Of a stretch of DNA of 64,000 bases, positions 24,060 to 57,060 are shown one piece after another. Location: contig PUQB01000305.1 in assembly GCA_003024785.1 (NCBI GenBank), positions 124,001 through 188,000 of the forward strand, written 5' to 3'. How positions within the stretch are numbered: the stretch's first letter is position 1; every line of letters begins with the position of its first letter. This stretch comes from Selaginella tamariscina (Eukaryota; Streptophyta; Lycopodiopsida; Selaginellales; Selaginellaceae). The translations under genes were made by a program, and so were the position numbers. The notes beneath the pieces were generated by a model, which had not been told where the DNA came from, ran no database searches, and saw nothing but the letters and a program-made list of their open reading frames with translations.

Positions 24060-24177
24060 GTTTGTACCTGAAGTGTCAAGCCACGATCCAAGAATAAGGA
24101 AGATAGCAGAATTTTGAGAACAAGGAGGCTTGACTCAGGAGCCGGACAAGGAGCAGGATAAGAACTGGAGCAGGATA

Positions 24178-30437: not shown

Positions 30438-30439
30438 AA

Positions 30440-36222: not shown

Positions 36223-36261
36223 ATAGATCTGGTGTGTTTGTGTGTTAAATCTCTATTATGT

Positions 36262-36395
36262 ATTAGGAAGTGAATCAGAAATTAAAATCTACATTCGAAG
36301 TTCTACCTGGAGTAGATTTTAATTTCTGATTCACTTCCTAATAGATGTCTTTTAAACTAAGTTCTATCTGGAACTTGGCAGTTTAAAAGACATCT
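36262..36395. repeat. Compound inverted repeat downstream of NTPase copy C
   Basis: A perfect 31-bp inverted repeat (36262-36292 with 36312-36342, 19-nt loop) begins ATTAGGAAGTGAATCAG. A second stem follows with AGATGTCTTTTAAACT near 36343-36358 and AGTTTAAAAGACATCT near 36379-36395. Copies A and B have only the single-orientation sequence, so the fold-back is new in C, as template switching would produce. Confidence 0.9.
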
Positions 36396-36660
36396 ACCAA
36401 CGGAAGTGTAAGCTCTTCTTTGTTTAAATTTTGGTCGATATCTACGTTGCTTAAGCATCTCTCTGGGCATATCCCTTTGCCGCCGAGGAACGGACACGAT
36501 TTCTTTACAAGAGCTCTATTTTCAGTAACCATGCCAGAGAACGGACACGATTTCTTTACGAGAGCTTCATTTTCGGCAATCATGCCAGGTCTGTGGTCTC
36601 TCTCAAAGGAAATTTTTCGAGCTTGAATTCAACGGTTCTTTTCGGAGCTTTTACTAGGCC
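36396..36660 (+). other. 3' flank of NTPase copy C
   Basis: This matches 19470-19800. It contains the short duplicated stretch around AACGGACACGATTTCTTTAC (36490 and 36540). Nothing else is recognised. Confidence 0.5.
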
Positions 36661-39600
36661 AGATAAGTAAATTTGAAGATGACCCTGGAGAATAATCCAG
36701 GCCTGTCATATGCAGATATTCAAGCTCTAGTAATAACTCATGATCCATATCCGCAAGGAGAGGCCAGTGGTACTGAAGGTCATTCCAGCTTTGTTCCTCC
36801 ACAAATTTTGTACATTTCGAGTCAAGTGAAGCAGAGAAGCTACTTCAATCCACAATAATTTGAAGTGGGAGCAGTGCTTACAACTTTAAGAGCAGCAGCA
36901 ATGCCAACAAGGGCTCCATTTCACTGTCAAAGTTTGGACCATGTAACTATTGCAAGAAGATGGGGCATTTGAACAAAACCTGCCCAAACAAGGCAGCAGG
37001 AATGCCACAAGCAAGCGAGTTGAAGAACAAGGGTAATAACTGAATGATCCTCATGGTGATGACTAATATGAACTCTTGGGAGGAAGAAAATGTTTTCTGG
37101 TTGGACAGTTGTGCCAATGTTCATTGCACCCTAGTATTTGCCACTTTCAAAAGACTTACCAACTAGTTCCAGAGGGAGAAGGGGTTTTCATAGGAGATTG
37201 ACGACCCTTCAGCATTGTTGGAGTTGGCACAATGAAGATTCGCTTATGCAATGGTGAGATTGTGGAGCTTTGACAAGTACACTTTGTTCTCACACTTGGT
37301 GAAACACTTTTTTTAGCAAATGCTGGTTGGAAAGGGGGATGAGATTATCTACACCAACAAGAGAGGAGTCAGGATAGCATGAGGCCAGAGGTATGCTGGC
37401 AACTATAGACTCGACGCAACATTGATAGTATCCAAGAAATAGATTTTTTTGACACGCCATGAGACTCTTCAATGGTACTAGTGACTTGGTCATGCACACG
37501 AGGTAGCGATCCATGAAGTGGCTCGTGATCAAGCTCATCTTCTAGAGCTTCAAGTGATGGGAGAGAGCCTCTAGTTTTGTGAGGCTTGTAGCTTCAGACG
37601 GCAACATCCATAGCCATTTCTCAGTAAGGGCATTTGCTATAAGACCACTCAACCTCTAGAATTGGTGCACACAGATGTGTGTGGACCGATGCATGTTCAT
37701 CATTGAGTAGAAAGAAGTATTTTTGACATTTATAAATCGTTATCTAGAAATCTAAGGTGGCGAAGAACTTTTGACTCTACAAGATTATAGCAGAAATCGT
37801 GTGGCAAGGCCTCAAGATCTATACACTCAAGAGTGACCGAGGAGGCGAGTACCAAGTTGGCACACTTAGGAAGCTGTGCGAGGAGTTTGGGATCCAACAG
37901 CAGTACACAGCTCCATACTCGGCTCAACAAAATGGCGTTGCCGAGAGAATGAATCGCACCTTAGTCGAGACAACAAGATGCATGCTCATGCATGCAGGAA
38001 CACCGCTCAGCTATTGGGCAGAGGCCTTGAACACAACCACCTACATCCGTAATCGACTTCCAGCGAGGAGCATTAGTGGAGAAGTTCCCTTCACCATGTG
38101 GACAAGTTGGAGAGCCAATTTGAAGCATCTTCGAGTTTTTGGGTGTTTGGCATATGCACATGTTCCAGATTCACTTCAACACAAGCTAGAGGCAAAGAGT
38201 CGAGTGTGCATCATGGTAGGATATTGCCATGAGAGCAAGGCATACAAGCTTTACGATCCGATTCACCAGGAAATTATTGTGAACTGTGATGTTCGGTTTA
38301 ATGAAGTTGTTTTTTACAAGGATCGATTTAAGGTGTAGGTTTATCTAGGGGCATATGTTCTACTCAAAGAGGAACTGCTGGTGGTTTCTCAGGGCCAGAG
38401 GACAGCTACACCCCCACCTCCCCCAACCCCAAGACACTTCAGAACAAGAGTTTAGCACCGGGCTTCACTGACATCCTCAGCAACTAAGGAGGAGCTCGAG
38501 AGCGAGGAGGAGATTCCTCCTCTTGAGCAGGTTCCAAAGGAGGAGCTGCAAGCACCTCCACAAGTCCCTAATCCAACTCGGTCGATCAACACCATCACCA
38601 GAAGTGGGAGGATCAACTACAAGTCCTTGAAAGCAAGAGAAGTTGATGATCACATAATCTTGTTTTTCACCTCAAAGTACTCTCGGGAGCCATGAACAGT
38701 GCATGAGGCTTTAGCTTCACATGAGGCAGCAGATTGAAAGGCTACCATGGAGGAGTATACTTCTCTCCTCAAGAACCGAGTCTGGGATTTGGTAACTCTT
38801 TCCCCAGGTCAGAGAGCTGTGACTACAAAGTGGCTCTTCAAGCGCAAGCTAAATGCTTAGGGAGAGGTTCTCAGGTATAAAGCTCGTTTTGTAGCACAGG
38901 GATTCTCACATATTGCTGGAGTGGATTTTTATGAAACTTATTCACCAATGGTGAAGATGGCCTCCATTCGTCTCATTCTTCAGATAACAGCTCAAATGGA
39001 TTTGGAGGTTCATCTTTTTGTTGGAGGGGGAAGAATACACCACTCAGCCTGAAGGTTTCATGAAGAAAGGCCAAGAACACAAAGTTTGCAGTCTTTGGAA
39101 GGGCTCTTTACGGTCTCAAGAAATCTCCCCTTGCATGGTATAACCATGTGGACTGGTTTTTCACCTCCATCTAGTTTTGGAAGTCTTCAGTCGATGGAAA
39201 TGTGTACGTGTTTTGCCATGGAAGAGATTTTGCTTACTTTGCATTGTATATGGACGATAATATCATGGCTTCTAGTCAACTTCATTCTTCGAATAGAAGT
39301 TTCGATCTCAGTTTGAGATCTCAGTAGCAGGTGACCTGTGTTATTGTCTTGGGATACAAGTTTTTAGAGATAGAGCAACATGCGTAATGCAACTCTCCCA
39401 AGCCCATTATGTTCATGAATTTCTTAACAAGTTCAACATGGAGGACAGCAAGTTGGCCAGTACCCCATGGACGTGAAAGCTCAGCTCACTAATGCTCAAA
39501 AGCCGACATCTGAGGAGGAGAAGCGAGCCATGGCCTAGGTTCCCTATCGTCAAGCAGTTGGTTGTCTTCTATACCTAGCCATTTCAACAGATCCATATTT

Positions 39601-39671
39601 GGCTTTTGTAGTGGGAGTTGTTTCCCACTTTGTGGCAAATCCAAGTGAGGCTCATTGGATAGTAGTGAAAA
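36661..39671 (+). mobile_element. Ty1/Copia fossil beside copy C, left part
   Basis: Counterpart of 19840-22871, with gag zinc knuckle (CNYCKKMGHLNKTC), integrase (LKSDRGGEYQVGTLRKLCEE and YSAQQNGVAERMNRTLVE) and reverse transcriptase parts on the plus strand. A 14.28-kb DNA transposon interrupts it, and the rest continues at 53956. It is broken, with many breaks. Confidence 0.85.
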
Positions 39672-39698
39672 ATGCAAGTTGTAACTAAAATGGGCATG
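39672..39698 (+). repeat. Left terminal inverted repeat
   Basis: It starts ATGCAAGTTGTAAC and ends TGGGCATG, pairing with 53925-53951. It is also similar to 823-850. Confidence 0.88.
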
Positions 39699-40169
39699 GC
39701 TATAATCCCATTTCCTAATAATTAGCAATTTTAGTTATTTAATTAACATTTTCTAATATTAAAGAATATTCTTTAGAATATATGTTTGAAAAGAATATTC
39801 TTTAGAATATTCTATTTTGTATTCGACCCTTTAATAAATTATAGCATTCATTGAACAAAAATTAATAACATTATAAAAGTAGAAATTATATAATATATTG
39901 CCTAATATAACAATTAAGGAAGAGCATAAGAGGTACATTATATAAATATTGATGTTGTTATTAAAATATTAATATTTAAATATAACATTATTAATTAAAA
40001 ATTTGTAGTAGTAATAATATATATATATAAAATCCTATAATAATATAGTCAATCTTCCATATCATTTTTTAAATTTATATAGTTAAGTAAACAATTTGGT
40101 ACTATTATTAAAGAGTTTATAATAATTATGAATATTAAATATATGATATTTTATAATTTTGTAATTGCT
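39699..40169. other. AT-rich subterminal stretch of the transposon
   Basis: Very AT-rich, with GAATATTCTTTAGAATAT repeated near 39765-39812. No gene is seen. Confidence 0.6.
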
Positions 40170-43045
40170 TTAAGCTTCAGAAAACATACATTCCCTTGCA
40201 GTTTTGTTAATCGTGACTTTATCAACGCTTCTTGACATCCACCCATATCGAATGGATTTAACATTTATAAAACATGCTGGGTCTTTTTGATTGGGAGACC
40301 ATGTTTTCTCTAGGCATCCATTATATCTTTCGCTCTCCTTCTCGTGTCGCCTTTTTTGTGGTTTGAACCATGCAACCTTAACAATACTATTTTTTGTGAT
40401 TACTTCAGGTGTGTCGATAATTTGACCCATCCAAATAGGCTGATTATATGACGCATCTGGAGTAATGAGAACCATCATTAGTTTTTGAAGATCCTGGCAG
40501 CAATCAAAGTATGCTTTAGGTTTTTGGTTCCTTTGTCCAACAAAGTGTGGGGTTTGCACTTCCACATCACTACTGGCTTCTATGTCGTCTGTGCTCAGTG
40601 ATGTCATTTCAATCTCCTCTCGCCACCTTGTTTTAGGCCAAAAAGGGTGTTGCAATTCTGTACTTGTGACAGTAGGCCCTTCCAACTCTCGAACAACAGT
40701 CTCCCAATAGTCGACCACATGCTTATATAGTTCTGAGTAACCAGTTGCCTTATCAGAATTCTTTGGCATCGATTTTTGAACCCATGCCACATATTTTTTG
40801 ATGCCATCAATAATAACCTCTTGTTCCTTGAGCTGGGCACTCAATGGAATAGGGTCTGGTTGTCCTTCTGGGAGAAGTGGCTTTCCATTCTCTCCACTTT
40901 TGAAGAGCATTAACCCCTCTTTCGGTAACCACTCCTGCTCTGATGGCCGTAACTTGTACTGCATAATAGGTATACCATCTCGTATGGAGAAAAAGAATTG
41001 TAGCGGCACAAGGTGACCAACTAAAGAATCACTTCTTTTATATACTCCTTGAGAAATTTTTTGAAGTCTGGCACCTCAGTCACAAGCAAAGCACAACTTT
41101 TTTTGGAGATGCAATTTTCAAAAAGATTCATCATATGCGGTAAGGTAAGTGCACTTGTCCTTTTTGTAGAGTTGGAGACCTTGCTGAAGAACGCATCAAT
41201 ATCTTCATGAGTGTGACCAACCATAAGAAAACTGAGCGTGATTGTTTCAAACACACCTTTGGCAACAAGCATTGACAAGTATGCTAGCACATATCTAGAA
41301 AATAAAAGTAAGTATGAGCTTGAGAAACCCTTAAGTAAAATGATTTACCTATTTTTGTTCTCGCCTGCACAATTATCCATCTGTAAAAGCAAATGACGAG
41401 GAAGCTTATTTGATGTTGAGGACACATGTACACTATTTGAGCTAGATCCCTCCACTGAACCTGAACTCTCAACAGGGCCATCTGTTTTTTGTGCAGGTTG
41501 CTGACAATGCCTCTCATATTCCCAAGTAGCCTCAAGTGCAGACGTGTTCATGAGAGCATTATGTAAAGGTTGAAGGTGTTGTTTCTTCACTTTGAGATCA
41601 CTGATAGGACTTGTCTGTGAGTGGGCTTCAAGGTTTCTGAAACACATGGCAACGACCCAATAGTGAAATTGGAGTCGCTAGACCAATGTGGAAGTGAAAA
41701 GTGTCCATATGACTCACAACCGTGTCCATGTGTTAGCACACCTGTCAATGAAATCGGAAGTTTCATGACATTTCCAAGGCACTTTGGTGTTGCAAGAGCT
41801 TTGGAATGCTGGTCTTTGAATGATCCATCTTGTCATGGATCAAGCACAGGTACTCTGATGGGCGTGACACAGAAAGCATGCGGTGTGCATAGTACTGAGA
41901 CCGGCAAGTTTGTTGTGCAATCATGTGGGCCTCCATCTTCTTTTGAATGGAGTGATCTCCACCAAGGTTTTTGCACAAGCCTCTGCAGCCTTCAATGATG
42001 TACAAGTGTCACACTTAAAAAGCTAGAGTGTTTTGCAATCTCCACATCCTTAAAATGAGTATGTTGAAGGTACCAGTGCAGATTGCTTGAGCCCCATCTG
42101 AGGCACTTGTTCACATGTTCACACAGCTTCAATTGAGTGTAGATTGAAGGCAAAACCTTGAGATTTTCCCTGACCCCTGCATTTGTGGTTCGGCATTTGT
42201 GAGGCATCCTGTCTGCATTTGCTTCCACAAAAGCCTTGAGTATCTCTATGGCTGCCATAATGTGAGAGCGGGTTTTGACCAAGCGAGTGTTCCCATGTAC
42301 TGAGGTTCGCGCTCCATCTAGCCACTCATCCCTCCGACGGTAGAACGTGGTCTTTGGGATCCCGTATATACTGTACCAAGCTTTGAAGCAGATGGCCACC
42401 TTATTAAATACCATGGATGTACTCTGATAATGTCCGAGGCCATTCCATCAATACACCCAGTTAGTGCAGCATATACAAACTCATGCCTTTGCTTTTGGGT
42501 GAGCATACGAAAGACATGTCTACATTGGGTAATTTCATTCCGGTCTGCCATCTGACAACACTTCTTCTTGCAGCAGTCAATCGTGGAAATGCTCGTAACA
42601 CTTTCGGAAGATGTAGGATCCATCTTACCCTCTTGCTGAAACTTGCAGGGGAAGATCTACAACCCATGAATCGCCTTTTTCTTACAATAGGACCAATGCA
42701 AGGAACCTCTTCAAATATGAGTTGTTCTTCCGGGTTGTTATTATTGAAATCCAACCCAGAATATGTTGAACCATCTTGCCGTCTTAATTCAGATGTTCGC
42801 CACCTCAAGGGATCCAGGATGCCATTAGGTGAAACCTCTGTCACAACTACACCCACGAAGTCGGACCCTAGTTTCTCTTCTGACACTGCTTCCATTGGAT
42901 TTATAGCTGTGATGATGCCTCTCCCAACCTCAATCTCATGAAGAAAGAGAATCACCTCATCCATCAGCAGGCAAGCCATCATCTGGAAAACTCGTGCTAC
43001 TGTTTGTTTGTGACTCTGTATATTCTGTGTCAGCCTTGACTTCAT
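40170..43045 (-). CDS. DUF7869-type transposase-like gene
   Basis: The minus strand, read over several exons or frames, shows the order of DUF7869 proteins. First comes a Cys-rich N-terminal part (CCKKKCCQMADRNEITQC, 42540-42600), then a helix-turn-helix-like stretch (WYSIYGIPKTTFYRRRDEW) with HGNTR. The core motifs are LIHDKMDHSKTSIPKL (41832-41834 encodes the Asp), QMDNCAGENKN (41351-41380) and VGHTHEDIDAFFS (41195-41218). These D, D and H/E/D motifs look like an RNase H-fold catalytic core; the transposase role is inferred from position beside the inverted repeats. A 54-bp GT-AG intron (41348-41295) joins NKN to YVLAYLS. At least one frame change near 41020 suggests decay. Confidence 0.7.
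41295..41348 (-). other. 54-bp spliceosomal intron in the DUF7869-type gene
   Basis: On the minus strand GGTAAATCA opens and TTTTCTAG closes it. Removing it puts GENKN in frame with RYVLAYLSMLVAK, which is the conserved continuation in this family. Confidence 0.8.
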
Positions 43046-43091
43046 CCAAATTTCACAATACAGGAGAACCCTCCTAAAATTCCATTTCCGG

Positions 43092-44919
43092 TGTCATAGT
43101 TTTTACTATGACTTAACCCTTTACTTTGGATGTTGACTGTTGTTACCTACTGTACTATGTTGATGGACCTTAGATGTAGTAGGAAATAGGCTCGCTTAGT
43201 GCACTTGGGTATTTGGTGATGGTCCGGCCGGGTGTTATTAGGTATTTGCAGGAAACTCTAAGCGAAGCTAGAACTTACCTTCTAGAAACCCACCCCTAAT
43301 TTTGATGTCTCAAATAGGCTGATTGGTCTTTGCAGATGAGTTCGACGTGTTAAGTAGGGTTAGGAACACCCCTAGGGTTGACCTAACCTTAGGGTTTCCC
43401 TAACCCACGCCCTAAAACCCCCACCCCCTTGGGTAGGTTTAGGGGTAGGAGTAAGGGTGAGTTATAGGCTCATATTGTTAATTTATCTAAGGGGCTAAAA
43501 TTCAGTGCCATCCCACTTACACATATAGGAAAAGAGAGGGGGGGGGGCTCCGTCACATAAATAAGGTAAAGTATATGTAAGAGAGCTCCTGGGTTCATGA
43601 CTGAGTTCGTTGCTCTTCTGTTGGTGCAAGCTTTAGCTTGTGTCATTAAGGTACAACCCTCTGTTGTGCCGCCCTAACTTCCAGATGCCAGGGGTACGTC
43701 CCACCTTTGGGGTAGCTTACCCTTAACGTTGACGAATCCATGCCTGGGAGGTCTTGTCGGAATGCACGTTCCAAGAGGCAAAGGTTGAGGCTTGTCTCCA
43801 GCCTACTCCTCCACATCAAGCTAGGTATAGCACTCATAGCCAAGCAAGGCACATTCGTGTCCTTGTCCAACTGTGGGCGTGAGATCTTTTTTGACAGGTT
43901 CACGTTACCTGGTTCCTGAGGATTCATTGAGGGATTCTAGAGTTGGCATTTAGGAGCCACGTTTGTGGCACTTGGTGCAACTCTTGAATCTAAGGGCTAT
44001 AGCATGATAGCCCACATCGGGGAAGGCAGTGTCACATGGAGATGTGACACTGGGCTAAACGTCACATGGTGCAACGCCTGAGGCACGCCCTTTGGCGTTA
44101 TGTCATGGGCTTGTTGCCAAGGGGTTGGATACTTTAGCAAACAGACATGCTTGTGCTTGCACTAGGGTGCTAAGCCTTGGGCATCCGCTCAAGGGAGGTT
44201 AGGTCTCATAACTAGGTGTGCATTGGCACACTTGGCTAAGGGAGTGTTTCTCCCTAAAATTCAAGGGTTGAACAACCTAAACATGTTAGCAGGAGCCCTT
44301 TCATGAGGCACTCGCAAGGTCATGTGCTTAGGATTATCCCAAACCTAACCTTAAGGAGTTTGCTTAGCAGAACACCCGTGTCCGCTTACGGCACACACTC
44401 GTGTCCTCACTAAGTACTAGCCCTAGGTCTAGGGTATAACTTGGCCACTCAAACCCTTAGGGGTTAGTCGTGGTTTAGGGTACCCCTTGTCGCCCTAAAA
44501 GGTTGTACTCCCGGATGAGGGTGATTCCTCAAGGGGTAAGTGACAATGCCTTAGCTCTGTCCAGGGTATGTGGAACACACGTCTCCTTGATGGGGGTTAG
44601 GGCATGAGCCTGTCTAGGTCTTCTAGGGCAAGACCCTAAGTCAACTAGGGTTATCCCTTAAGGGTTTTGGAGGTAGACACTCTAGGGAGACTTAGGCTAA
44701 ACCCTAAGTCAACTAGGGTTATCCCTTAAGGGTTTTGGGGGCAGACATTCTAGGGAGACTTAGGCTAAACCCTAAGTCTCCTGTCCACTTGGGCATTAGA
44801 GTCTAACCTTAGGGGTCATTGAGGTTATTCTGGAAAACTTAGCGTTGTTCACATAAAGTGATGACGCCGAATGGCCACCTGGTAGCCACGTGTTGGCCCT
44901 TTAGGTTAAAACTCTGACA
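43092..44919 (+). mobile_element. Long-family LTR inserted in the transposon
   Basis: An 1828-bp LTR running TGTCATAG to CTCTGACA. It belongs to the family of 28695-30437 and 58624-60252, in opposite orientation. It contains an internal duplication of a stretch with CTAAGTCAACTAGGGTTATC (about 44636 and 44702). A primer-binding site follows, so this is a 5' LTR with at least some leader; no partner LTR was found before 53951. Fossil, inserted after the transposon formed. Confidence 0.85.
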
Positions 44920-44934
44920 ATTGGTATCGGAGCC
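44920..44934 (+). promoter_or_regulatory. Primer-binding site of the long-LTR family
   Basis: TTGGTATCGGAGCC directly after the LTR resembles the plant site TGGTATCAGAGC for initiator-methionine tRNA. It sets the family's orientation as plus here. Confidence 0.8.
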
Positions 44935-47386
44935 ATTCTCTGTGGTCAGCAGGACTGTCTAAAGTTGTAGTGTGTTTCATGGTTTAGTTAGTTTTAAATT
45001 TTTGAAGTACTTTATCACTTTCGGCTAACGTCTGAATTTTGCGCGAAGAGTTGGTCCTGAGATCTATAACTCTTCAAAGAACATCTACTTAATAAGTGAG
45101 TGTGGGTTATGGACTCCAATGTCAAAGGTAGCACTCGGGGGCAACTTCCAAGTTGCATGCCAGGTTACGTTTTCTCTAGGTTACTTTACCTTATGAATGT
45201 TCAGGTTTTTTACCATATACTTTCACAAGATGTGGCGTGTTAGTTTGTTCTAACTTACAAACTAAGTCTTGTGAAGTGGATCATGTGATATGCTAAGTTT
45301 ACACATTATTGAAATTTTTTATTTTTTTTAAGGTGTCTGAATTTGGGATAACACATGATTTGAAAACATATAGTATCTATTGAGTTTTGGCTTAGGTTAA
45401 GATTCAATATCATTTCCAGCAATAGTGTTCAAATGGGGAAAGACTTATGTTCAAATGTGCGTCTTTGACTTCGGAAAAATGGGGCATATTCAAACATAAG
45501 AGGAAACATTACATTCTGACAGAAGTTGTAAAATAAGCTCTCATTATAGTGCATGTTTTCCAGAGTGTAACTCCAGAAGCAGACTATGGTGATGAACTAT
45601 AATATAATGGAATGTTGGATATTGACATATGATAAATATGTTAAGCAATGGGTTTGAAGAGCTAATGAAGTCATAGTGTGTATATTAATATCATTTTCTT
45701 AATTACTTGAGTAATTAATCTTCTTTATATTAATGCGATATTCTTTATTATTTTCTTATTATTCCAAGAATATTTCAATATTAAACATGATTATCATAAT
45801 TAATTTAGTTAATATTTCAGTACTTGATCTACATTTGTATATATTAATGGGATTTTCTCAATTAATTTCTTTTTATTTCAAGAATATTTAGTGTTAAACC
45901 TTATTATCAATATTAAATTAATATATATTATTAAAACTATATATGGCTATATATTAAATAAAATCATATATTATTATGTATAATTTAAAATATGTTCATA
46001 TTGTGTTTATTAATATTATTTTCTTAATTATTCGATGTTTGTTTTGCACACATATATAAACACAATCCATTCATTGATATATTACCATGCACACGCATTA
46101 GAAGCACTTACAGAGACATATATACACACACATGCACATTGCCCTAAACTAAACTTGAGAAATTATATGTTGCTTCTTTATTGAAAAACATTATGTTCAA
46201 CGCATGTATGATCTATATGTACTCAGTCTGTGTGTATGTAACACATTGAATTTACACATGTAATATATATGTATGTCTGTGTGTATACATGTGTGTATGT
46301 ATATATGTGTACTAATATATGCAATGTGTACGATTTTCATTTGTTAACACTCTCTCTCTTCTCTCATACATACATAGTGTCACCATGCATATCCCTTCTC
46401 TTATACATACACACCATGCATGATCATGATCCATAATATGTAGCCTGTCTCTTCTCTCATACATATACATCATGCATGATCCATAATATGTATTGATTTA
46501 TTATGTAATATGTATAATGTATATCTGTGTATAATATGTGTATGTATATATGTGTACTAATATATTCAATGCGTACAAAATTAATTTTTTAACACTCACT
46601 CCTTTCATACATACACACCATGCATGATCCATCCTAACCCTAAACCCTATGTAACACATTGAATTTACACATGTAATATGTATGTATGTTTATGTGTATA
46701 CATGTGTGTATGTATATGTGTGTACTAATATATGCAATGTGTATGAATTTAATTTGTTAACACTCTCTCTCTTCTCTCAAACATATACACCATGCATAAT
46801 CCATAATATGTATTGTCTCTCTTCTCTCATACATACACAACGCATGATCCATAATATGTATTCTGTCTCTCTAATATTAATATGTATTAATATGTATGTA
46901 TGTCTATGTATATAATACTATGTGTGTATATATGTATTGCTGCACGTGAAACTTTAACACTCTCATGTACACACACATGTTAAACCCCTGCATGATTTTT
47001 ATTCTTGGGGTGTATGTGATACACCCATGCACACGCACACGCTGATAATATAATAAAAGAATATTCGTTTAGGGCGAATCTATAGTTTATTCTTTTTAAT
47101 ATTCTTAAAAGGAATATTCAATTAGGGTTAATATATATTCTATTCCTTTTAGGGTTTAGGTATATTCCTAGGGTTTCAAGAAGTAAGGCGGCAGAGGCAG
47201 CGGCTGTGAGATCAGATCCTCTCTCACACACAGGTGAGATCTCTCTCTCTCTCTCACACGCACACTCCTGAGTTTATTTATTTATTTTTATTCACATATA
47301 TATTTATATGTGTGTGTATTTTAATAATATAATTTAGATCTCTATCTCTCGCACACACACTCACACTCGTATACATATACACACAC

Positions 47387-47387
<1 letters not shown>

Positions 47388-47431
<44 letters not shown>
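47388..47431. repeat. (TA)n microsatellite
   Basis: An uninterrupted TA dinucleotide run of about 40 bp. Length is liable to assembly error. Confidence 0.9.
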
Positions 47432-47434
<3 letters not shown>

Positions 47435-47535
47435 ATATACATATAATATACATACATATATTATGTGTACCAGTATCTGTATAATTCTATTTATTTATTT
47501 ATCTCTCACACACACACGCACACTCCTATACATAC

Positions 47536-47620
<85 letters not shown>
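47536..47620. repeat. Long (TA)n microsatellite
   Basis: A TA dinucleotide run of about 80 bp with one CA interruption near its start, flanked by CA-rich runs on both sides. Confidence 0.92.
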
Positions 47621-47624
<4 letters not shown>

Positions 47625-47814
47625 TACACACACACACACAAATATATATGTGTGTGTGTGTATCTGTATAATTTTTTTAGCACACACATATGATAACATA
47701 TACATATGCATATGTGTGTGTGTATCAGTATAATTTTATCTGATTTGTTTATCTCTGGCACACACACGCACTCTCCTACACACATATATACATATAGATA
47801 TATATGTGTGTGTA

Positions 47815-48832
47815 GCGGCGGGATTAATCCCGTCGCTATATGGTTAGACCCTCGGCGGCGAGATTAATCCCGCCGCCTTCAGGCAGGCTATTTGGTTAGC
47901 CTCATGAGTGGCAAGATTAATCCCGCCTGCCATGGCCTGTGTGCTGGCCTAGGCGGCGGGATTAATCCTGCCGCATATGCATGCCCTGCGCGAATCTGGC
48001 GGATTTATCCCACCGCCATGGCCTGTCCGAAGGGCCTAGGCGGCGGGATTAATCCCGCCGATTCCGCACAGGGCATGGCGTCCGGGGGATTAATCCCGCC
48101 GCATGGCTGCGTGTGGGCCTAGGCGGGATTAATCCGCCGCGTACACATGCCCTGCCGGAATCGGGCGGGATTTATCCCGCGCCAAAGGCCTTCTGAAGGG
48201 CCTAGGCGGCGGGATTAATCCCGCGATTTGCACAGGGCATTGGCGTTCCGGCGGGATTAATCCCGCCGCCCAGGGCGTGCTGGGCCTGGGGCGGATTAAT
48301 CCGCCGCGTACGCATGCCCTGCCGAATCGGGCGGGATTTATCCCGCCAAAGGCCTGCCTAAGGCCTAGGCGGCGGGATTAATCCCGCCCGATTCGCAGGG
48401 AATTGGCGTCCGGCGGGATTAATCCCGCCGCATAGGGACCGAGTGAAGGCCGGGCGGATTAATCCCGAGCCTTCAATGCTTTGGAGGAATGAATCCCGCC
48501 ACCCTTCCTTTTTCTCCATTGGTGAGTCGGACCAATCCCAAACGTTTCTGTCTGAGACGTAGAAGGTTTACAACATACCAATGGAGGACTGGGAAGGGGG
48601 CGAGATTCATTTAACCATCCCTTACATGGTGGGCGAGATTAATCCCGCCGCCTTTCTGGAGTCACTGAAGGGGTGTGCCAAATAAATCCTGCCAGTTCTC
48701 TCTGAGACCGAGAAGGGTGGCAAGATTAATTCCGCACTCCCGTTCAAGGCCTCCAGAAAGGTGGCGAGATTAATCCCGCCCACTCTTTCAGGAGGCATTG
48801 AAGGGGTGGCGAGATTAATCCCGCCGCACCTT
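47815..48832. repeat. Array of about twenty 18-bp palindromes
   Basis: The palindrome GGCGGGATTAATCCCGCC, exact or with one to three changes, recurs about every 40 bp. In the middle of the array four subunits form a higher-order unit of about 165 bp (comparable starts near 48039, 48205 and 48368). Spacers recur too, for example GGGCCTAGGC and GCATGCCCTGC. The array is strongly GC-rich inside AT-rich DNA and lies between the microsatellites and the ParB-like gene. Left and right thirds are more diverged. Variants change both halves in a way that often keeps the dyad (GGCGGATTAATCCGCC), as if symmetry were under selection or a conversion process maintained it. Confidence 0.92.
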
Positions 48833-48939
48833 CCATGTGAATATATATGTGTATTAGTATATATAAGTTGCATATCTCATTTTATTTACTTTTATCATCT
48901 TATCATAATATTTCGAGTAAAAGCTAGGAATCTATGTAA

Positions 48940-49026
48940 AACTGTCCAGAGCTCACATTTGTGGTGGTTCTAAAACGAAATGTTATCTTTCTTTTGCACT
49001 AGCACAAATGTGAGCTTTGGACAGTT
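48940..49026. repeat. 24-bp stem inverted repeat upstream of the ParB-like gene
   Basis: Arms AACTGTCCAGAGCTCACATT (48940 onward, 24 bp) and its near-perfect reverse complement at 49003-49026 are separated by 39 nt. There is one mismatch in 24. It could fold as an RNA hairpin or be the remnant of a small inverted-repeat element. Confidence 0.88.
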
Positions 49027-49169
49027 AATTCGTCTACTTCTCTCTGTGTATTATTTTTGTATATTCGGGTTTATACAAGTGTGTGTGCGTTTTTATATGA
49101 TTTGTATTCATAGTGTATTATTTTGCAGAAGGACGATTTAATTAAACAAGGAGATCGAGTCATTAGTAT

Positions 49170-52016
49170 GGAGTCGTCGTCAAATTCTGGGTAAGAATTA
49201 AAATAAAATCTGTTATACTCGGATATTGCTTGAACTAATCATTTTTGTATTCAGATGTGGAATTGAGGTGACATTAAGAGAGAGCAGGAGAAGAGATGGG
49301 CAGGGGGATTCTGGAATCAACTTGGCCATATTTCAAAAAACGGGAAGCGCATTGGAACAACCATGGTTGCTGTCAAACTAACCTCTGTCACATCGCATGG
49401 ACAAGCAAAACAATGGAAAGTGGGTGTGCTAGTCAAGCATCCGAAAGCATGCTGCGAACCCAGATTGAACGATGCTCGACACATATGCCTTGTTCCATCC
49501 AATGTCACGTTCTCGGATCCAGAGGTCGCCAGTTACAACATTAATTTCGGGTGGTTTTGTCGACTTGTGGATAATGACGTTCACGTGTTCACTAATGATG
49601 TTGACCTGGAGTTCTTCTTCAACTCAACGAAAGCCCATCTATGGAGGGGATCCAACTGGATGTCTACTTCGAAGATCTTCAGACTCATCGAGTAGGTGTA
49701 TTCTCAGAGATTTGCTTCACAATACAGAAAATCACAAGTGGAGCAATCGTCCCTCTTCACATTGAAGAAGAACACAGCGACATCATAAGGAGATTGAGAG
49801 GGTGGCTTGGTCTCAGGTTCTTTACAGATCACGTTCAATTTGCTTAGAAATTTCGGGAGCTGGAAGAGTGTGCCGAGAACATTAGAACAGCATCAATCGG
49901 GGATCACACATGTTGATTGGATCGTAGAAGAAAATCATCATCGTTTTGTCAGCTGCACCTGTGGCATCCCATGCTGCAATAAGCCACAAGGAAATGATGT
50001 TGGATGATAATTTATGAGTGTAGGGTTAAATTGCAGCGTCAACCCAAACTTCAATTACAGGCCACTCAACAGGAACGTGTAGCTGAGCTCATGGAGAAGA
50101 TGAAGGACGACAATTCTTACACCGTTCCACATAATGTGTTTTGTGCGCATACTATGAGAGAAACAAAGGCGCTGACAAAGTGTGGATCACAACACCGAAC
50201 AAATGAGGAAGGTTCAGACGGAGAATAGAAAATCATCAAGTACTACATCATTAGTGGCCAGCACACAATAACGGCAGCCCAACGACTTCTCGACGAACAC
50301 AACAAAGGAACGATGGCAACAAAACTTTCCGAGCATACCCGTGAGAAGCTGACGAAAAGATCGGCGTTTTTAGCGAAGCCGAATCTCACAATCGAGCAGT
50401 ACCATAAGTTATCGGCGGAATGGGACGCTGCAGACACCAACCACTACAACAGCAAAATATGGGAGAAGTTCAAACACACGCGAGCCGTGTGGGAATCTCT
50501 TCAGCGACCACAAAGAGCTACCGCAGGAATACACAATCTGCGGACTACCGGGTAAGCAAATTGTTTGGGCGGGATTTATCTCGCCGGTATATTAATCTGT
50601 CTTTTTTTCAGAGAGTTGAAGAAATTGTAGCAGTTGATTTTGCCCAGGTGGGCGGGAAGGAAACATCCTTTTGATGATGTTGATTTCTTGTCCCGAGGAT
50701 AGGATCTTTGCCAAATGGTTGGGGATTATGGAATCCTTTGCAAAAGGAACACTGAAGAAGAAGCAGACAAGTGAAGGGAGCCCTCAGAGAAGTCTGCAAA
50801 GAAACCCAGTAAGACGCCGAAGGCTAAGTCTGTTCAATCTATAAAGGATGTAGACAACGATTTCAAGCTCACATGGTTGAAGCCTTTAAATGGAACAACG
50901 ATGGAGGAGATGGAAGTCTTGGCTGATTTGGTGATTGATGGCAAATTACAGATTAACAACAGCAGCCCCACCTCTCCTTTTCATCTCAAGGCAATGGAGT
51001 TGAAGACGGTCAGGCACTTCAAGGAGTGGTTGGGAATACACTGCCACAAACTGGGTTGGACCTCGGCTTCAACATACGAAGAGGTCAGCAAATATTTGCA
51101 TGTGACAAACGATGATATGCTTGTCGAATGGGTGAATCAATCGGAAGATCTGGGCAAGAATCTATTGCACGCCAACGCCAAAAGGAGAACATTGCGATGA
51201 CGCCTTCTCTTATGGCAGTCCTTCAGCAGCGGAGAACCGAGTTGAACCTTATAAAGGAGGATGCTACGAATCACGACAAGCCCTACAGATGTTTGTTGTT
51301 GGATTCGGAGACTTTATGGGGTACCATCACTGCTTGTAGGAAACCGTTTCAATTGTTCGTGATGGATCGGCGGGTGTCAAAAAATCCTTCGACAGACAGG
51401 ACATAGAGGATTGGTGGAGAAACTTAGCCGTGCAAGCATGTACAAAGAAGGTATTTATTATTGAATTCATACTTGCACTCTTGACTGATATCTACTTTTC
51501 AGGTATTTATTTCTTGATTCTTGCTCATGTCACCGATACCTTTGCCTTCCCTTTGCCAAGAGGAATAAACATCGTTGGACAGGATTTTATATGAATGATG
51601 CTGATCCGAAGTGCATTGATTCGGTTGTTCACTTGGTTGTTAGGAATGCGCCAAACATTTCAAACTTCCAAATGACTGGCCAGGCATCTGTTTGCACTCC
51701 AACGGCCCTGAACCTCCATCCGATACACCGATAGGTAGAGTGACGTATTCGGCAATGTACGTTATCCAAACATTACAAGTCAAGCGGCACGGAGCATCGT
51801 CAACTTGATCAGGGGTCCTCACAGTGATGCGTGGGTTTTTGACTACTGCACTAGGGGGTCCGTCTTGAAGGAGTGTTACCTTCGGCATACATGTGTGTTT
51901 GCCGTTGAAAAGGATAAGACCATGGTTGAGGACCTGAACAAGTGGATAGATAGGTTCTCAACTGACTACCCCAACGAATCCATAAAGGAGTATTTGAGAA
52001 AGTTCCCTCCATAAGT
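49170..52016 (+). CDS. ParB-like / DNA-methyltransferase-like gene, decayed
   Basis: The plus-strand coding signal runs through several frames, so either introns or decay (probably both) are present. The N-terminal part has ARHICLVPSNVTFSDPEVAS and ITSGAIVPLHIEEEHSDI, family unknown. At 50241-50280 is KYYIISGQHTITAAQRLLDE, which resembles the ParB/sulfiredoxin-fold signature (G-H-R/T-A-A). Further on are RCLLLDSETLWG and FQLFVMD, then a C-terminal AWVFDYCTRGSVLKECYLR with CVFAVEKDK. That last part is shaped like the S-adenosylmethionine-binding motif of amino-DNA methyltransferases (VxDxxxGxGSV, then xxVExD). ParB-methyltransferase fusions are known from phages and bacteria. A role in methylating element DNA is inference. 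Confidence 0.5.
50563..50586. repeat. Isolated copy of the array palindrome
   Basis: GGGCGGGATTTATCTCGCC matches the GGATTTATCC-type subunit of the array at 47815-48832. It sits alone inside the ParB/methyltransferase-like gene, probably in an intron or gap between coding blocks (a GGTAAGC donor-like site lies just upstream and TTTTTTCAG just downstream). Confidence 0.7.
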
Positions 52017-52490
52017 GCGATAGCTCTGAAGACGAATCTGGTTCAATGTCGGAGTCTGAGGACGAACTTCAATCAGATATTAGACCGGAAGTTATCTCGA
52101 GGAGTACAGAACATTCACACACTCCATTACCCATGGAAACATCAATAGAAGATAGAAGATCTTGAACCATCTCACAAGCGGCTTAGACCTTCTTCGCCTC
52201 ACTCAGAAGGTAATAGCGAAGAAGAATTGTTAATGAGTTCTTAGAGTGACGAATAGTTGTAAATGAGTGTAACATAAGGCATTTTTGTATATTTCGTTTA
52301 TATTTGTACAGAAAATAAATTCTCAAGGATTAACTTTTAGTTCAAACATGGGTCACACATTAACAAGGTAAATAATATACCTTGATAATTTTAAGGTCAG
52401 CTAATTATCATTTTGCAGATGTAATGAAACATTGAGAACATGGATTTTCAGCATTGCATGAGGTAAGAGAGGGGTTTGGCGACAATTTCT
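52017..52490. other. Spacer between the two plus-strand transposon genes
   Basis: It begins with Ser/Glu-rich codons that may be the tail of the upstream gene (SEDESGSMSESEDELQSD), then becomes AT-rich. No independent gene is seen. Confidence 0.4.
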
Positions 52491-53470
52491 TGTGCCACAT
52501 GTCAGAATGACAGAGTTCATGCAGGAAATGGATAATAATGCAGCTCAAAACATCGTTACCATGGGGGCCACTTCAGTTTTTTCATCATTTTTATTGGCTT
52601 CAGTTCCGAAATCAATTTCTTCAGCGCATGCAATATCTGAATCTTGTAAGGATGATGTACAATTAAATGATGAAGGGATAGGCAACGAGATAGTGGCAAC
52701 GGATAAATGTGAAAGGGAGCAAACAAGTGATTTGCAAAGTATTCAAGAGGCAACGCTATCCATGTTACTCATGGCCATATTGTGTTGTTGGATGTCAATG
52801 GTGTTCTGCTTCATCGACAAAGGCCCGAGGATAGGAAAAAAGAAATCAAACAAGGAGATTTCATTCCTTGTCATGGTAAATTTCGATATGATATTATTTT
52901 TCGTCCAGGGTTGGATCGTCTCTTTCAAAAGCTTAAGGAGATGGGTGCGCTTGTGGGGATTTGGTCATGCATGCAGATTCATAACTTAACACCGCTGTTG
53001 AATTTGCTTAAGAAACATTGTAGTGTTGCAGAAGAGGTGATTCGTAAAGATTGGATTTTTGACCAGCGAATGTTATAAACCTCTCGAATTTCACAATATA
53101 AAAAGGAAAGCAAGCCATACTTCTTCAAGAATGAAAGAATAATTGGGACTCATGGGGAGATCAGTCGCTTAAGGATAATGAAGAACACATATTTAGTGTA
53201 GACGACTCTCCTCAGAAGGCTATGCTCAACCAAAACATTGCTTGTATTCATCCAATCACTTTCGATCCATATTCTGATACCGATATCATGGATGAGCTAG
53301 TGAACTACTTGGATACGTGCCTCAGAAAGAAGAATCTCGAAAATTTTGTGAGCAGTATCCACCGTATCAACATTTCCTGAAGCTTTTCTTTCTCGTGATT
53401 TTGAATTTTATAAAATGAAGGATAGCAACCGGGCGCTTTATAATATTATTCTTAAGGAACGTCATTTTTA
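52491..53470 (+). CDS. FCP1/SCP-like HAD phosphatase domain, decayed
   Basis: The plus strand has the HAD motif I-like VLLDVNGVLLHR (Asp at 52791), then FRPGLDRLFQKLKEMGA and VGIWSCM, as in FCP1-homology domains (RPGL...WS). The motif III/IV-like VDDSPQKAML is at 53208-53230, followed by NIACIHPITFDPYSDTD. FCP1/SCP enzymes remove phosphate from serine residues, for example on the RNA polymerase II tail. An N-terminal extension at 52492-52770 is acidic and of unknown family. The blocks lie in more than one frame without clear introns, so the copy is probably decayed. It may be a captured host gene. The motif-I sequence DVNGV departs from the usual DxDxT. Confidence 0.65.
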
Positions 53471-53924
53471 GATGAGCCTTTATGCAGACCTTCTTATCAC
53501 ATCTTATGTATTAACAAGGATGGCAACTCCCAATTGCATTCGTGAGAGTGTTAGGTGGTGGCAACAACATCAAGATATTGACCAAAATGATTTGATTAAT
53601 CCGGAGAGTGATGATTTAGACAAAATGAAAATTTCTCTGTATGATAGGAAGAAAGTATTTATAAAAAATTAACATGTTGATAAGAAAATGATTTCATTTG
53701 TAATTATGTTTGATAGTATTTCTTCATTATTGTAAACTATTTTTAGAATAATATGAATATTCTAAGATATTTTAGGAATATTCCTTACTAAGTAAGGTTA
53801 TTGAAGGATTAATTAATTAATTAATTAATATTTAAGGCTTAATTACATATTAATTAAATGATTAATTAATAATTAAAACTTAAGTATTAATTAGTAATTT
53901 ATTTTATATTCCCATTTTCACGTA
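53471..53924. other. AT-rich right subterminal stretch
   Basis: A short open stretch at 53472-53672 may continue the preceding gene (VLTRMATPNCIRESVRWWQQ). After 53690 the DNA is AT-rich with TTAATTAATTAAT runs and no gene. Confidence 0.5.
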
Positions 53925-53951
53925 TCATGCCCACTTTAGTACAACGTGCAT
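53925..53951 (-). repeat. Right terminal inverted repeat
   Basis: It reads CATGCCCACTTTAG and ends ACAACGTGCAT, the inverse of 39672-39698. The AAAA at 53952-53955 is the second target-duplication copy. Confidence 0.88.
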
Positions 53952-53955
53952 AAAA

Positions 53956-54329
53956 GGATCTTGAGGTACTTATGAGGAACAAGTAGGTACTGCCTCACAT
54001 ATAGAGGGAGTGGGAGGTCCATAGGTTCCACATGTTGCAAAGATGGAGTTAGTTGGTTATACTAACTCCAACTGGCAGGGAACATTGAAGACATGAAGTC
54101 TACTTTAGGTTTCTTGTTTTTCATGGATGGAGGGCTAGTTAGTTGGAAGAGTAGGCTACAAATGGTGATCACTCCTTCCTCGATGGAGGCAGAGTAATGT
54201 AGTAGCAACCAAATGGCCAAGGAAGCAACTTGGTTAATGCACTTACTAGAAGACATGGAACTTGAAATTCCAAGGCCAATCACAGCATATTGTGATAGTA
54301 CAAGCTCAATTGCAAGTTCAGCAAACTCC
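53956..54329 (+). mobile_element. Ty1/Copia fossil beside copy C, right part
   Basis: Copia homology resumes at AGGATCTTGAGGTACTT exactly where it stopped at 39671 and matches 22872-23230 (RNase H region). Fossil. Confidence 0.88.
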
Positions 54330-54546
54330 AAGCATCAAAGACACCCATACTGGTGCGATGTTGCTTGAAGAGATCTTTGCTCAAAGGCTTCGTAAGAGCA
54401 TCTGCTATCATTTCTGTTGTTGATATGTACTGAAGCCTAATCTTCTTCCTCTGCACCTCTTGTCAAATAAAGTGATACTTGAGTCAATGTGTTTCACTCT
54501 GGCAAGACTCTCACGTTTGAGTGAGAATGTTGTGGAATCCAGCGTG
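54330..54546 (-). mobile_element. Inverted Copia RNase H tail, block C
   Basis: Counterpart of 23231-23451, tail to tail with the plus-strand Copia fossil and abutting a Gypsy LTR. Fossil. Confidence 0.7.
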
Positions 54547-55115
54547 TAGTCGTTGGGACTCCGAAGGCCAGATGTGGTGCTTCTCGCAGTGGTCGCCAAG
54601 ACGCTGTTGAGAGCGTCCAACCCCGGGGTTCAGTCAGCAAGCCAGGCCTTACCTCAGGAGTAATGGAAGGTATTGGATGGCCACTACCCGGACGCCACGA
54701 GGGCCTGTGTACAGGTAAGGGGGAGTTCTATTGAGATGACTGGGCAGAGAGTGTTGCGGGGCCTAGGAGTCGGGCAAGTGGGGAACGCTCGCTTGTAAGG
54801 TAAATAAAAGGAAAATGGATATATATATATATATTGCCTGTTTGAGTACAAACTATCTCCGACAGTGGAGCAAGATATAAGACGTAGACCTGACTCCCGA
54901 CCCACTACTCGCCTTCCGGCTTATATAGTGGGTTACCTACCGCTAGACTCTAGGTGCAGGTGGCCCTTCCCACTGGTCTGCCGCCTGGGTGACAGAGTCC
55001 TGCCTGCCACATTTATGTGCCTCCCCACGCGTGTTGTCCTTTGTACCTTGAGTAGTTGGTCTGGATGATCGGATCTACGCCTGGTTACGCCACTACCTAA
55101 CATTGGTCGCCATCA
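54547..55115 (-). mobile_element. Gypsy LTR, left (3') copy
   Basis: Matches 23452-24059 and 61804-62383. With the minus-strand body to its right it is the 3' LTR of the Gypsy element at 54547-62383. Fossil. Confidence 0.8.
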
Positions 55116-55129
55116 ATTTGTACCTAAAG

Positions 55130-57060
55130 TACCTCCCTTATCCGGCGCTTCGTCCCATCACTTGTCCCCGCTGGTGGATGTCCCGCTAGCTGGCCGTTGA
55201 CGGTGTCGCCACTGTCAACCAGATGCTTGGACTTATTCGTTGGCACATCCTCGGCCATGTGCCCTAGGTATCTGCCCCTTGGAGCTCCCGGTACATGGCG
55301 ATTTTGTCTCTGTTGCAGCTAGCGTGGTCTTAATGTGGTGATGGTCGCTTCCCGTAGCGTGATCACCCTTCAGAGCTTTGCCTTGGACCCTACCTGTTGC
55401 TCCCGAACCTGCTTGAGTTGACCCTCTAGGCTGTGCCCGTTCTTGCGAGTGTTAGCTCTTGTTCCCTTGCCACGAGGAGTTGGGCTTGTAGCTGCTTCTA
55501 GCTCCCTGATGGTCCGTGCCGAGTCCTGTGGTTCTTCGATTGGTTGGCGCTTCGCGAGTGGGGAGACGGTCACCAAAGCTCTATATGACTCGGGCGTGGG
55601 TCTCTCTGAGGAAGATGGGGGGATGATTTCGAGCTAGTGGTGGCTCGGTGCAGCTCTTCTTTGGCCGCAACCAGCTCTGGTGAACCCGGCTAAGCTCTGC
55701 TTCGCTCTACTCAAGTGTGGATCCTAGCTCAAAACCTGTCGCTCCTCCACCGTGACCTGCTCAAACTCCCATCCTAGTTGGTCGTGGAGCTTTTGGATGT
55801 GGTCATACTTGATTTGTAATTGATCCAAGTTGTCGGTTAACTGTTGACACGTCTCCTCTACTTGCTTCCTCCCGGCTTCCGTGATGTCCAAAGTTGGATT
55901 CCCTTGATGAGCTGGTCCGAGTACTCTCGGGCCTCCTTTTGAGCGGTTCAGTAGTTATCTGTGAGCTCCTGTATTATTGTGTCATGCTCCGCAGTAACCC
56001 CTTGAGATCCACCCATTGTCACCATTATGGATTTTCATATTTGGCCGAAGGCCTTGGACAGATCCATGTGCACTGTAGAGGTCCATAGCCCCTTCGCGTT
56101 GAAGTATTTGTACGTCCCCTTTAGCACGTTGCATGTGTCTTCCTCGTTGTTCACTTTGTTGGCTTGTGAGGGGCTGGCGGGGCCCTCCCCGTGTTCCGTA
56201 GGCCTTGGGTTGGTGGCCTCTACTCCTGAAGCTGCTGGTGGGACACCATGGTGGAGGCCCTCCGATCCTGTCCCCATGGTCCTCTTCCCCTGGCTTGCTC
56301 GCAAGGGAGTCTTCTCTCGCACGTTTTCGCGAAGACTCTGAAGTGTCCGGTTGTTTTCCCTTCTTTGGTTTGGCTGGGGCCTGCTTGTTCTCCTGCCCCA
56401 ATTCCCCGATGGTGCCTGAGTAGAACTGCTTCGGTAGGAGAATCAGAGTTTCGGTTGACTATCTAGGTGATCATCATGCTGAGGTGGCCCGCCGTTTGAG
56501 CCTTTGTCCAGTTCCCTTCCGGATCCCATTGATGTCGCGGGTCAGGGCTGGTATCATGTAGTGCATGAGGCAGTCTGCCCAATTCACTGTGACTCCTTCC
56601 CAGGCGTTGCAAGGGCGCTCGCCAATCGCGTGGCGACCCGCCTCTCTATCCTTCCTGTGAACATAAACACCGTAAGCGCCAGGAACTCATCCAGTTTGTC
56701 CCTTCATGTATGGAGTCGGGACATTGCGATTTCATCCCGGTTGGTGGGAACCATTGGCGTTTGGGTTCCCCAGGTCGTCTAGGAGTATGCCGTTTTCGAT
56801 AGATAGAACATTGCGGCTAGATCGTTGAGATTGATGTAGAAGCTCGCAAAGCCGCCCTAACCTGAATCGTAGCTCCTCTCGCTTGGTTTTTCCTGTCTCC
56901 AGGCTGGCCCATGCTGCAAATCCGGGCTTCTCTACTTCTCCCCAAGGGGCATCGAAAAGTCCGAGTAGTCGCATCTGCTTTGCACCCTCCGCACGTTGGG
57001 TCTGTTGATCAACTTTTGAAATCTAGAGAACCTGGGGCTACAAGCGCCACACTCCTATCC
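55130..57060 (-). CDS. Extra post-integrase region of the Gypsy element (fossil)
   Basis: Minus-strand reading includes LRFRLGRLCELLHQSQRSSR and NVLSIENGILLDDLGNPNA, then a charged linker with KPKKGKQPDTSESSRKRARE. EEDTCNVLKGTYKYFNAKGL and DLSKAFGQI follow, and finally a helical Glu/Arg-rich stretch (AQKEAREYSD, RTIRELEAA). Its position between integrase and the 3' LTR is that of additional reading frames known in some plant Gypsy lineages. No named family is recognised. Fossil. Confidence 0.6.

What the first reader, a model, noticed from the sequence alone, without database searches (positions are those of the whole stretch)
39672..53951. Large gene-carrying DNA transposon with a DUF7869-type transposase
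Inverted ends, an AAAA duplication checked against the empty site in block B, and at least three protein-coding regions plus a palindrome array make a 14-kb composite element of an unusual kind. DUF7869 proteins are mostly annotated as uncharacterised; here one sits at the end of a defined mobile unit, which argues that the family is a transposase. The cargo (ParB/methyltransferase-like and FCP1-like phosphatase genes) is not standard for known plant DNA transposons.
Basis: partly seen in the sequence, partly recalled or inferred. Interest (0 to 1): 0.88.

Follow-up and report, generated by a model that had tools for sequence, protein, structure and literature searches.

The report
Large, gene-carrying jumping DNA family
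This stretch is one damaged copy of a large cut-and-paste jumping element that has recently spread to more than a thousand copies in its host genome; complete copies carry a transposase, two extra genes and arrays of a short palindrome, which makes the element unusual although it resembles a known class of DNA transposons.

Summary
Confirmed to the base: 39672-53951 (14,280 bp) is one insertion with 27/26-bp inverted ends and an AAAA duplication; the empty site is at 22860-22863. The host assembly (300.7 Mb) was searchable. The family's left end occurs 888 times exactly, its right end 1,081 times (controls 0). Of 77 left ends examined, 32 pair with a right end within 20 kb, 25 of them at 13.65-15.09 kb. 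A 4-bp duplication is exact in 15 of 29 pairs (6 of 812 mismatched controls); 14 lack it. Of 16 full-length pairs, 16 hold the right-hand gene's marker and 13 the DUF7869 marker. A DUF7869 relative is predicted to have an RNase H-like fold like integrases and Mos1, with three invariant aspartates: very probably a DDD transposase. Sola membership is likely, not proved. The ParB/methyltransferase label has no profile support, yet that gene is under purifying selection; the phosphatase label is supported. Arrays of an 18-bp palindrome (27,128 exact genome copies) lie upstream of the two divergent units. The window copy was damaged by a nested LTR retrotransposon. A real, recent, abundant, gene-rich transposon: a new variant of a known kind.

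The parts
39668..39671 (.). Left target-site duplication AAAA
   Evidence: Direct reading against the empty site 22860-22863
39672..39698 (+). Left terminal inverted repeat, 27 bp
   Evidence: the same 27 bases stand at the left end of 10 of 10 fetched copies, which were chosen by left-end similarity
40170..43091 (-). DUF7869 (DDD transposase) gene, frameshifted in this assembly and without its 5' end; contains the DNC..ENKN and GHTHEDID motifs and a probable intron near 41285-41347
   Evidence: homologues; longer 5' part seen in other copies
43092..44919 (+). LTR (TGTCA...TGACA) of a nested retrotransposon, not part of the transposon
   Evidence: Related to 28695-30437 and 58624-60252 in inverse orientation; the same LTR is inserted at another place in copy C638
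44920..45670 (+). Primer-binding-like site (TTGGTATCGGAGCC) and truncated internal region of the nested retrotransposon
45671..47816 (.). AT-rich and dinucleotide-rich central region between the two divergent gene units
   Evidence: Alignment to other copies
47817..48830 (.). Palindrome array, GGCGGGATTAATCCCGCC and variants, upstream of the right-hand genes; 8 of the 15 spacings in this copy are 40-45 bp
   Evidence: exact 18-mer occurs 27,128 times in the genome
49169..52250 (+). Gene for an about 930-960-aa protein of unknown family (ParB-like and methyltransferase-like motifs by eye only), with probable introns
   Evidence: purifying selection; 34-mer marker found 1,717 times
50568..50585 (.). 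Single palindrome variant inside a probable intron of that gene, at a constant distance in the 7 full-length copies compared
   Evidence: last spacing 1,747-1,776 bp in 7 of 7
52462..53669 (+). NLI-interacting-factor/FCP1-like phosphatase gene (PF03031), frameshifted in this assembly; motif LLDVNGVLL
   Evidence: marker 34-mer found 1,212 times
53926..53951 (-). Right terminal inverted repeat, 26 bp (one base shorter than in other copies)
   Evidence: the 27-bp form of other copies is found 1,081 times
53952..53955 (.). Right target-site duplication AAAA
22860..22863 (.). Empty target site (AAAA) in a second copy of the flanking repeat

Best explanation
A large cut-and-paste DNA transposon, 13.7-15.1 kb when complete. 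Its DUF7869 protein, an RNase H-like transposase with an Asp-Asp-Asp active site, recognises the 27-bp inverted ends (and perhaps subterminal repeats), cuts the element out and joins it to a target with a 4-bp stagger, giving 4-bp duplications. A complete copy holds two divergent units: the transposase on the left (minus strand), and on the right (plus strand) a protein of unknown family followed by an FCP1/NIF-like phosphatase. An array of the palindrome GGCGGGATTAATCCCGCC lies upstream of each unit, with sites often about four helical turns apart. Shown: the ends, duplications, near-constant gene content, copy number, youth, predicted fold and conserved acids of the transposase family, and purifying selection on the transposase and the unknown protein. 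Inferred: that the DUF7869 protein performs the cutting; that the palindromes bind an element-encoded protein (transposase or unknown protein) to control the two divergent units or protect them from silencing; that the right-hand genes help the element spread. The closest named class is Sola.
Confidence: 0.85

Rival explanations
1. The same transposon, but the phosphatase and unknown genes are passively captured passengers with no role in movement (differs from the best explanation only in the role of the cargo).
For: Sola2 elements with extra (Fanzor) genes and 4-bp AT-rich duplications are described (PMC3627910, passages). Phosphatase: private changes are neutral (2 to 17) and shared ones too few (2 to 4) to show constraint.
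Against: The unknown gene is under significant purifying selection between subfamilies, and its marker is present in 16 of 16 full-length pairs, as expected of a gene the element needs.
Confidence: 0.3
2. Two elements fused: a second transposon carrying the right-hand genes and palindromes once inserted into a smaller DUF7869 element, and the composite then amplified.
For: The right-hand genes are in opposite orientation and separated from the transposase by a repeat-rich centre.
Against: A palindrome array also lies just upstream of the DUF7869 gene in 6 of 7 full-length copies (not in the window, where the nested LTR stands), so the palindromes are not confined to the right half. No internal ends were noticed, but no search for them was made.
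Confidence: 0.12
3. An endogenised virus or Polinton-like element rather than a transposon.
For: Size of about 14 kb, several genes, inverted ends.
Against: No polymerase, capsid or packaging domain in the 18 of 38 window ORFs scanned against Pfam, nor in the read-through proteins; 4-bp rather than 6-bp duplications (6 bp is recalled for Polintons); a pattern scan of 2.9 million viral contigs for DUF7869 gave 154 candidate stretches and no confirmed relative.
Confidence: 0.02
4. Apparent abundance is an assembly artefact (duplicated or mis-joined repeats).
For: Private indel columns outnumber private substitutions 127 to 37, the mark of unpolished long reads; 14 of 29 pairs lack duplications.
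Against: Distinct flanks with matching 4-bp duplications in 15 pairs, two diverged subfamilies with 89 fixed differences, and an independent empty site.
Confidence: 0.03

Closest known systems
Sola superfamily of DNA transposons (Sola1/2/3)
   Same: DDD transposase, 4-bp duplications, inverted ends of 11 bp or more, sizes mostly 2-9 kb with some over 15 kb, known in the moss Physcomitrella (PMC10741241, passages); AT-rich 4-bp duplications and an extra gene in some Sola2 elements (PMC3627910, passages)
   Different: No Sola sequence was available to compare; here two extra genes, palindrome arrays and more than a thousand copies of an about 14.6-kb unit or its derivatives
Pfam DUF7869 (PF25273) proteins
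   Same: The left-hand protein is a member; Physcomitrium, mollusc and echinoderm relatives exist
   Different: Family is annotated as of unknown function; here a member sits inside a defined mobile unit. No paper of the held library contains the word DUF7869
TET/JBP-carrying fungal DNA transposons and DNMT-carrying retrotransposons
   Same: Mobile elements that stably carry an extra enzyme gene (PMC12730594, passages; PMC5890265, abstract and outline)
   Different: Those enzymes are identified; here one companion protein has no recognised domain and the other is phosphatase-like
CACTA (En/Spm) elements
   Same: Repeated short binding-site motifs inside the element and an extra regulatory protein (recalled)
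   Different: CACTA termini and 2-3-bp duplications (recalled) are absent; ends here start ATGCAAG and duplications are 4 bp

Membership tests
Cut-and-paste DNA transposon with terminal inverted repeats | Inverted ends and fixed-length target duplication at unrelated sites | tested here: met
   15 of 29 pairs with exact 4-bp duplication versus 6 of 812 controls, 5 of 8; ends; the pairs without duplication are told in the report
Cut-and-paste DNA transposon with terminal inverted repeats | Encodes an RNase H-like DDE/D transposase | tested here: met
Sola superfamily | 4-bp target duplications | tested here: met
Sola superfamily | DDD (not DDE) catalytic triad | tested here: met
   Third acid D395 invariant in 64 aligned sequences; catalysis itself not tested
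Sola superfamily | Sequence relationship to a Sola transposase | not testable with these tools
   No Sola sequence at hand; the defining paper (PMC2727372) is not held
CACTA (En/Spm) | CACTA/G termini and 2-3-bp duplications (recalled) | tested here: not met
   Ends ATGCAAG..., duplications 4 bp
Polinton/Maverick or endogenous virus | Protein-primed DNA polymerase, capsid and packaging genes | tested here: not met
   No such domain in the 18 of 38 window ORFs of 80 aa or more that were scanned, nor in the read-through proteins; the other ORFs, many in overlapping frames, were not scanned
FCP1/SCP (NIF) phosphatases | NIF domain | tested here: met
   PF03031 E 1.7e-7 for the window ORF, 2.4e-12 for the read-through protein
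FCP1/SCP (NIF) phosphatases | Catalytic DxDx(T/V) motif (recalled) | tested here: not met
   The motif reads DVNGV: first Asp present, Asn at the second, so activity is uncertain
ParB / N6-N4 DNA methyltransferase | Significant profile match | tested here: inconclusive
   No ParB or methyltransferase profile in Pfam, NCBIfam, PHROGs or PADLOC up to E 10 (Pfam to E 1); the only hits were a coiled-coil model (HOOK, E 0.006, under its cut-off), Cys_rich_VLP (E 0.2) and a phage family of unknown function (E 0.028); model unusable, pLDDT 34.5; resemblance by eye only

The most novel reading that the evidence does not exclude
DUF7869 elements form a transposon class that carries its own DNA-binding or DNA-marking system: the unknown right-hand protein (ParB-like and methyltransferase-like by motif) acts on the palindrome arrays upstream of the two divergent units, marking the element against silencing or coordinating copies, with the phosphatase adjusting host transcription; this system is why a 14-15-kb transposon could reach more than a thousand copies. 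A lead from outside the host: a 4.3-kb contig with an intact DUF7869 ORF also has five near-palindromes of another sequence, three before and two after the gene (L087; up to four mismatches allowed, no chance control for this count).
Probability: 0.2. Interest if true: 0.88.

Novelty: new variant of a known kind. Interest (0 to 1): 0.68.

Why it matters
It turns an anonymous protein family (DUF7869, found in a moss, molluscs, echinoderms and many environmental sequences) into a testable transposase, and shows a DNA transposon succeeding at more than twice the size (6 kb of cargo) at which transposition is said to fall off (PMC6431247, passage). Exact 34-mers of two of its genes occur 1,666 and 1,717 times; if every such copy were full length the family would be about 8% of the assembly, or about 4% counting exact left ends only (arithmetic). 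A conserved companion protein of no known family and 27,128 copies of one perfect 18-bp palindrome open the question of how a transposon controls or hides itself to direct experiment.

Tried and rejected
Protein-database searches with the unknown protein (6,234 word-sharing candidates, none at E 1e-3 or better) and the phosphatase (1,367 candidates, none) found no homologue; both used read-through sequences and need shared exact words, so they do not show absence. tblastn of the unknown protein against phages to E 10 and a pattern scan of viral contigs found nothing. PDB sequence searches gave nothing usable: best E 0.063 for the phosphatase and 0.39 for the ParB-like piece; for the methyltransferase-like piece the only hits were two designed repeat proteins (E 1.2e-8 and 0.0068), the first a sum over nine identical weak repeats, none significant alone. 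A single-sequence model of part of the unknown protein was useless. DUF7869 in viral contigs: 154 candidate stretches, no confirmed relative. In bacterial and archaeal genomes: 45 candidate stretches, 3 loci, all in MAGs; contamination by eukaryotic DNA is likely, so no bacterial origin is claimed. Rfam on the window at gathering threshold: no match. I considered that frameshifts mean dead copies; the excess of private indels over substitutions (127 to 37) makes assembly error the better general reading, so frameshifts are not used to call copies dead. Papers: no hit for DUF7869; listings of searches for moss/ParB/methyltransferase transposons, Sola elements and gene-carrying plant transposons showed no title describing this element. 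PMC2727372 was not held.
Full report
WHAT IS THERE. The window holds a single 14,280-bp insertion at 39672-53951. Its ends are ATGCAAGTTGTAACTAAAATGGGCATG (left) and a near-reverse-complement at the right; AAAA is duplicated at 39668-39671 and 53952-53955. A second copy of the flanking repeat in the same window has the unoccupied site with one AAAA at 22860-22863: self-BLAST aligns 19859-22863 to 36679-39671 and 22860-24074 to 53952-55130.

GENES IN THIS COPY. On the minus strand, 40170-43091 encodes a DUF7869 protein (PF25273, E 7.7e-27 and 3.2e-6 for two ORFs). On the plus strand, 49169-52250 encodes a long protein of unknown family and 52462-53669 a NIF/FCP1-like phosphatase (PF03031, E 1.7e-7; 2.4e-12 for the read-through protein). 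The piece 43092 to about 45670 is foreign: an LTR (TGTCA...TGACA, 43092-44919) with a primer-binding-like site after it, inverted relative to LTR copies at 28695-30437 and 58624-60252, and seen again as an insertion in the phosphatase gene of another copy, C638. Where it stands, the window lacks the 5' end of the DUF7869 gene and roughly 1.4-2.2 kb that other copies have.

OTHER COPIES. The host assembly was searchable (300,702,823 bases, 1,391 contigs, no name). Exact counts: left end 34-mer 888, right end 27-mer 1,081, DUF7869 34-mer 1,666, unknown-gene 34-mer 1,717, phosphatase 34-mer 1,212; the reversed control was 0 in all five. The two end patterns are those of the other copies; the window's own ends differ by one base each and are not counted. 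Only the first 100 places of each are listed. Of the 77 listed left ends on contigs C1-C213, 32 have a listed right end in the right orientation within 20 kb, and 25 of the 32 lie at 13.65-15.09 kb (two of the 25 share one right end); 2 wrong-orientation pairs fall at 12-17 kb; 45 left ends had no exact partner within 20 kb. Of 16 full-length pairs on contigs C1-C113, 16 hold the exact unknown-gene marker 1,962-2,088 bp from the right end and 13 hold the exact DUF7869 marker 1,511-1,543 bp from the left end; a shorter pair, C42 (10.2 kb), has no unknown-gene marker. Of 55 left ends on contigs C1-C145, 40 have the DUF7869 marker within 4 kb inside in the right orientation. The exact phosphatase marker lies inside 48 of 86 right ends on contigs up to C182 and in 7 of 19 full-length pairs; the constant spacing between unknown gene and right end suggests that the region is present and the 34-mer altered in the others, but this was not read. 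Ten copies, chosen from the best left-end matches, were fetched: C1242, C1202, C904, C786, C468 and C202 hold all three genes between the ends; C638 holds them up to its LTR insertion; C460 is a 4.2-kb deletion derivative; C641 and C620 are rearranged.

TARGET DUPLICATIONS. In one search, 5 of 8 copies with both ends match exactly over 4 bp (window AAAA, CTAG, AGAT, AAGT, ATGT), C202 matches with a one-base offset, and C1242 and C1202 do not match. In one search, 15 of 29 further pairs match exactly over 4 bp and never longer, against 6 of 812 when flanks of different copies are compared; 3 of the 32 pairs were left out (two left ends 283 bp apart facing one right end, and C202, already seen). 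The 15 are AT-rich (47 of 60 bases) without a fixed motif. The 14 failures are real negatives; mis-joins or recombination between near-identical copies are likely, since C128 and C46 share a left flank and only C46 has the duplication.

SELECTION AND AGE. Eight copies fall in two subfamilies (C904, C786, C468, C202, C638; window, C1242, C1202) with 89 fixed substitutions in 3,372 alignment columns of the unknown-gene region; within the first subfamily identity is 99.67-99.94%, so the spread is recent; I give no date. Differences shared by at least two copies were scored against a neutral expectation and tested: DUF7869 18 synonymous to 10 non-synonymous (p 1.4e-4); unknown gene 55 to 46 (p 2.5e-8), of which its C-terminal part alone 7 to 15 (p 0.26); phosphatase 2 to 4 (uninformative). 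Private differences look neutral (7 to 14, 8 to 18 and 2 to 17). The p-values treat sites as independent. Private indel columns (127) far exceed private substitutions (37), so many frameshifts are probably assembly errors.

PALINDROMES. Seven full-length copies have 11-46 sites within two mismatches of GGCGGGATTAATCCCGCC. C1242, C1202, C904, C468 and C202 have an array just upstream of the DUF7869 gene and another upstream of the right-hand genes; C786 has the left array and a single site left of the right one; the window has only the right one. One further site stands at a constant place in a probable intron in 7 of 7. The perfect 18-mer occurs 27,128 times in the genome, control 0. Of the first 100 listed, all on contig C1, 99 are within 14 kb of an exact element marker, an area of about 14% of that stretch, and 37 of 71 spacings under 200 bp are 40-47 bp. 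This fits arrays of binding sites on one face of the helix; no binding was tested.

WHAT IT IS MOST LIKE. Sola transposons are described as DDD-transposase elements with 4-bp duplications, mostly 2-9 kb but some over 15 kb, present in Physcomitrella (PMC10741241, passages; PMC9033089, passages); some Sola2 elements carry an extra Fanzor gene and have AT-rich 4-bp duplications (PMC3627910, passages). This element works like a Sola transposon; membership by sequence could not be tested.

VERDICT. A real, abundant, young, gene-rich transposon family whose transposase gives a function to a DUF family. The kind is known; the size at this copy number, the companion genes and the palindrome arrays were not met in the listings, which cover one open-access library only.

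Noticed in passing
window 13419-22863, 30437-39671 and 53952-55130: The flanks are repeated blocks about 17 kb apart (about 90-95% identity) with a Copia-like reverse transcriptase reading frame near 39400-39660 (by eye, not searched); they supplied the empty site.
   Followed up: partly
window 28695-30437, 43092-44919, 58624-60252: Copies of one LTR beginning TGTCA and ending TGACA; the middle one is inverted relative to the others and nested in the transposon with a primer-binding-like site after it.
   Followed up: partly
L087:34-4091: A 4.3-kb contig from a cyanobacterial MAG holds an intact 947-aa DUF7869 ORF with five near-palindromes (TTTAGCTCGA.TCGAGCTAAA) on both sides of it; probably eukaryotic contamination.
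   Followed up: partly
L009-L028 and window 49126-52450: Private indel columns are over three times as frequent as private substitutions between 8 copies, suggesting an unpolished long-read assembly.
   Followed up: yes
G000:C128:23307 and G000:C46:48861: Two copies share the same left flank but have different right flanks, and only C46 has a target duplication: recombination or mis-assembly.
   Followed up: no
window 39760-39775 and near 53740-53790: AT-rich GAATATTC-type short palindromes lie close inside both ends and may be subterminal binding sites.
   Followed up: no
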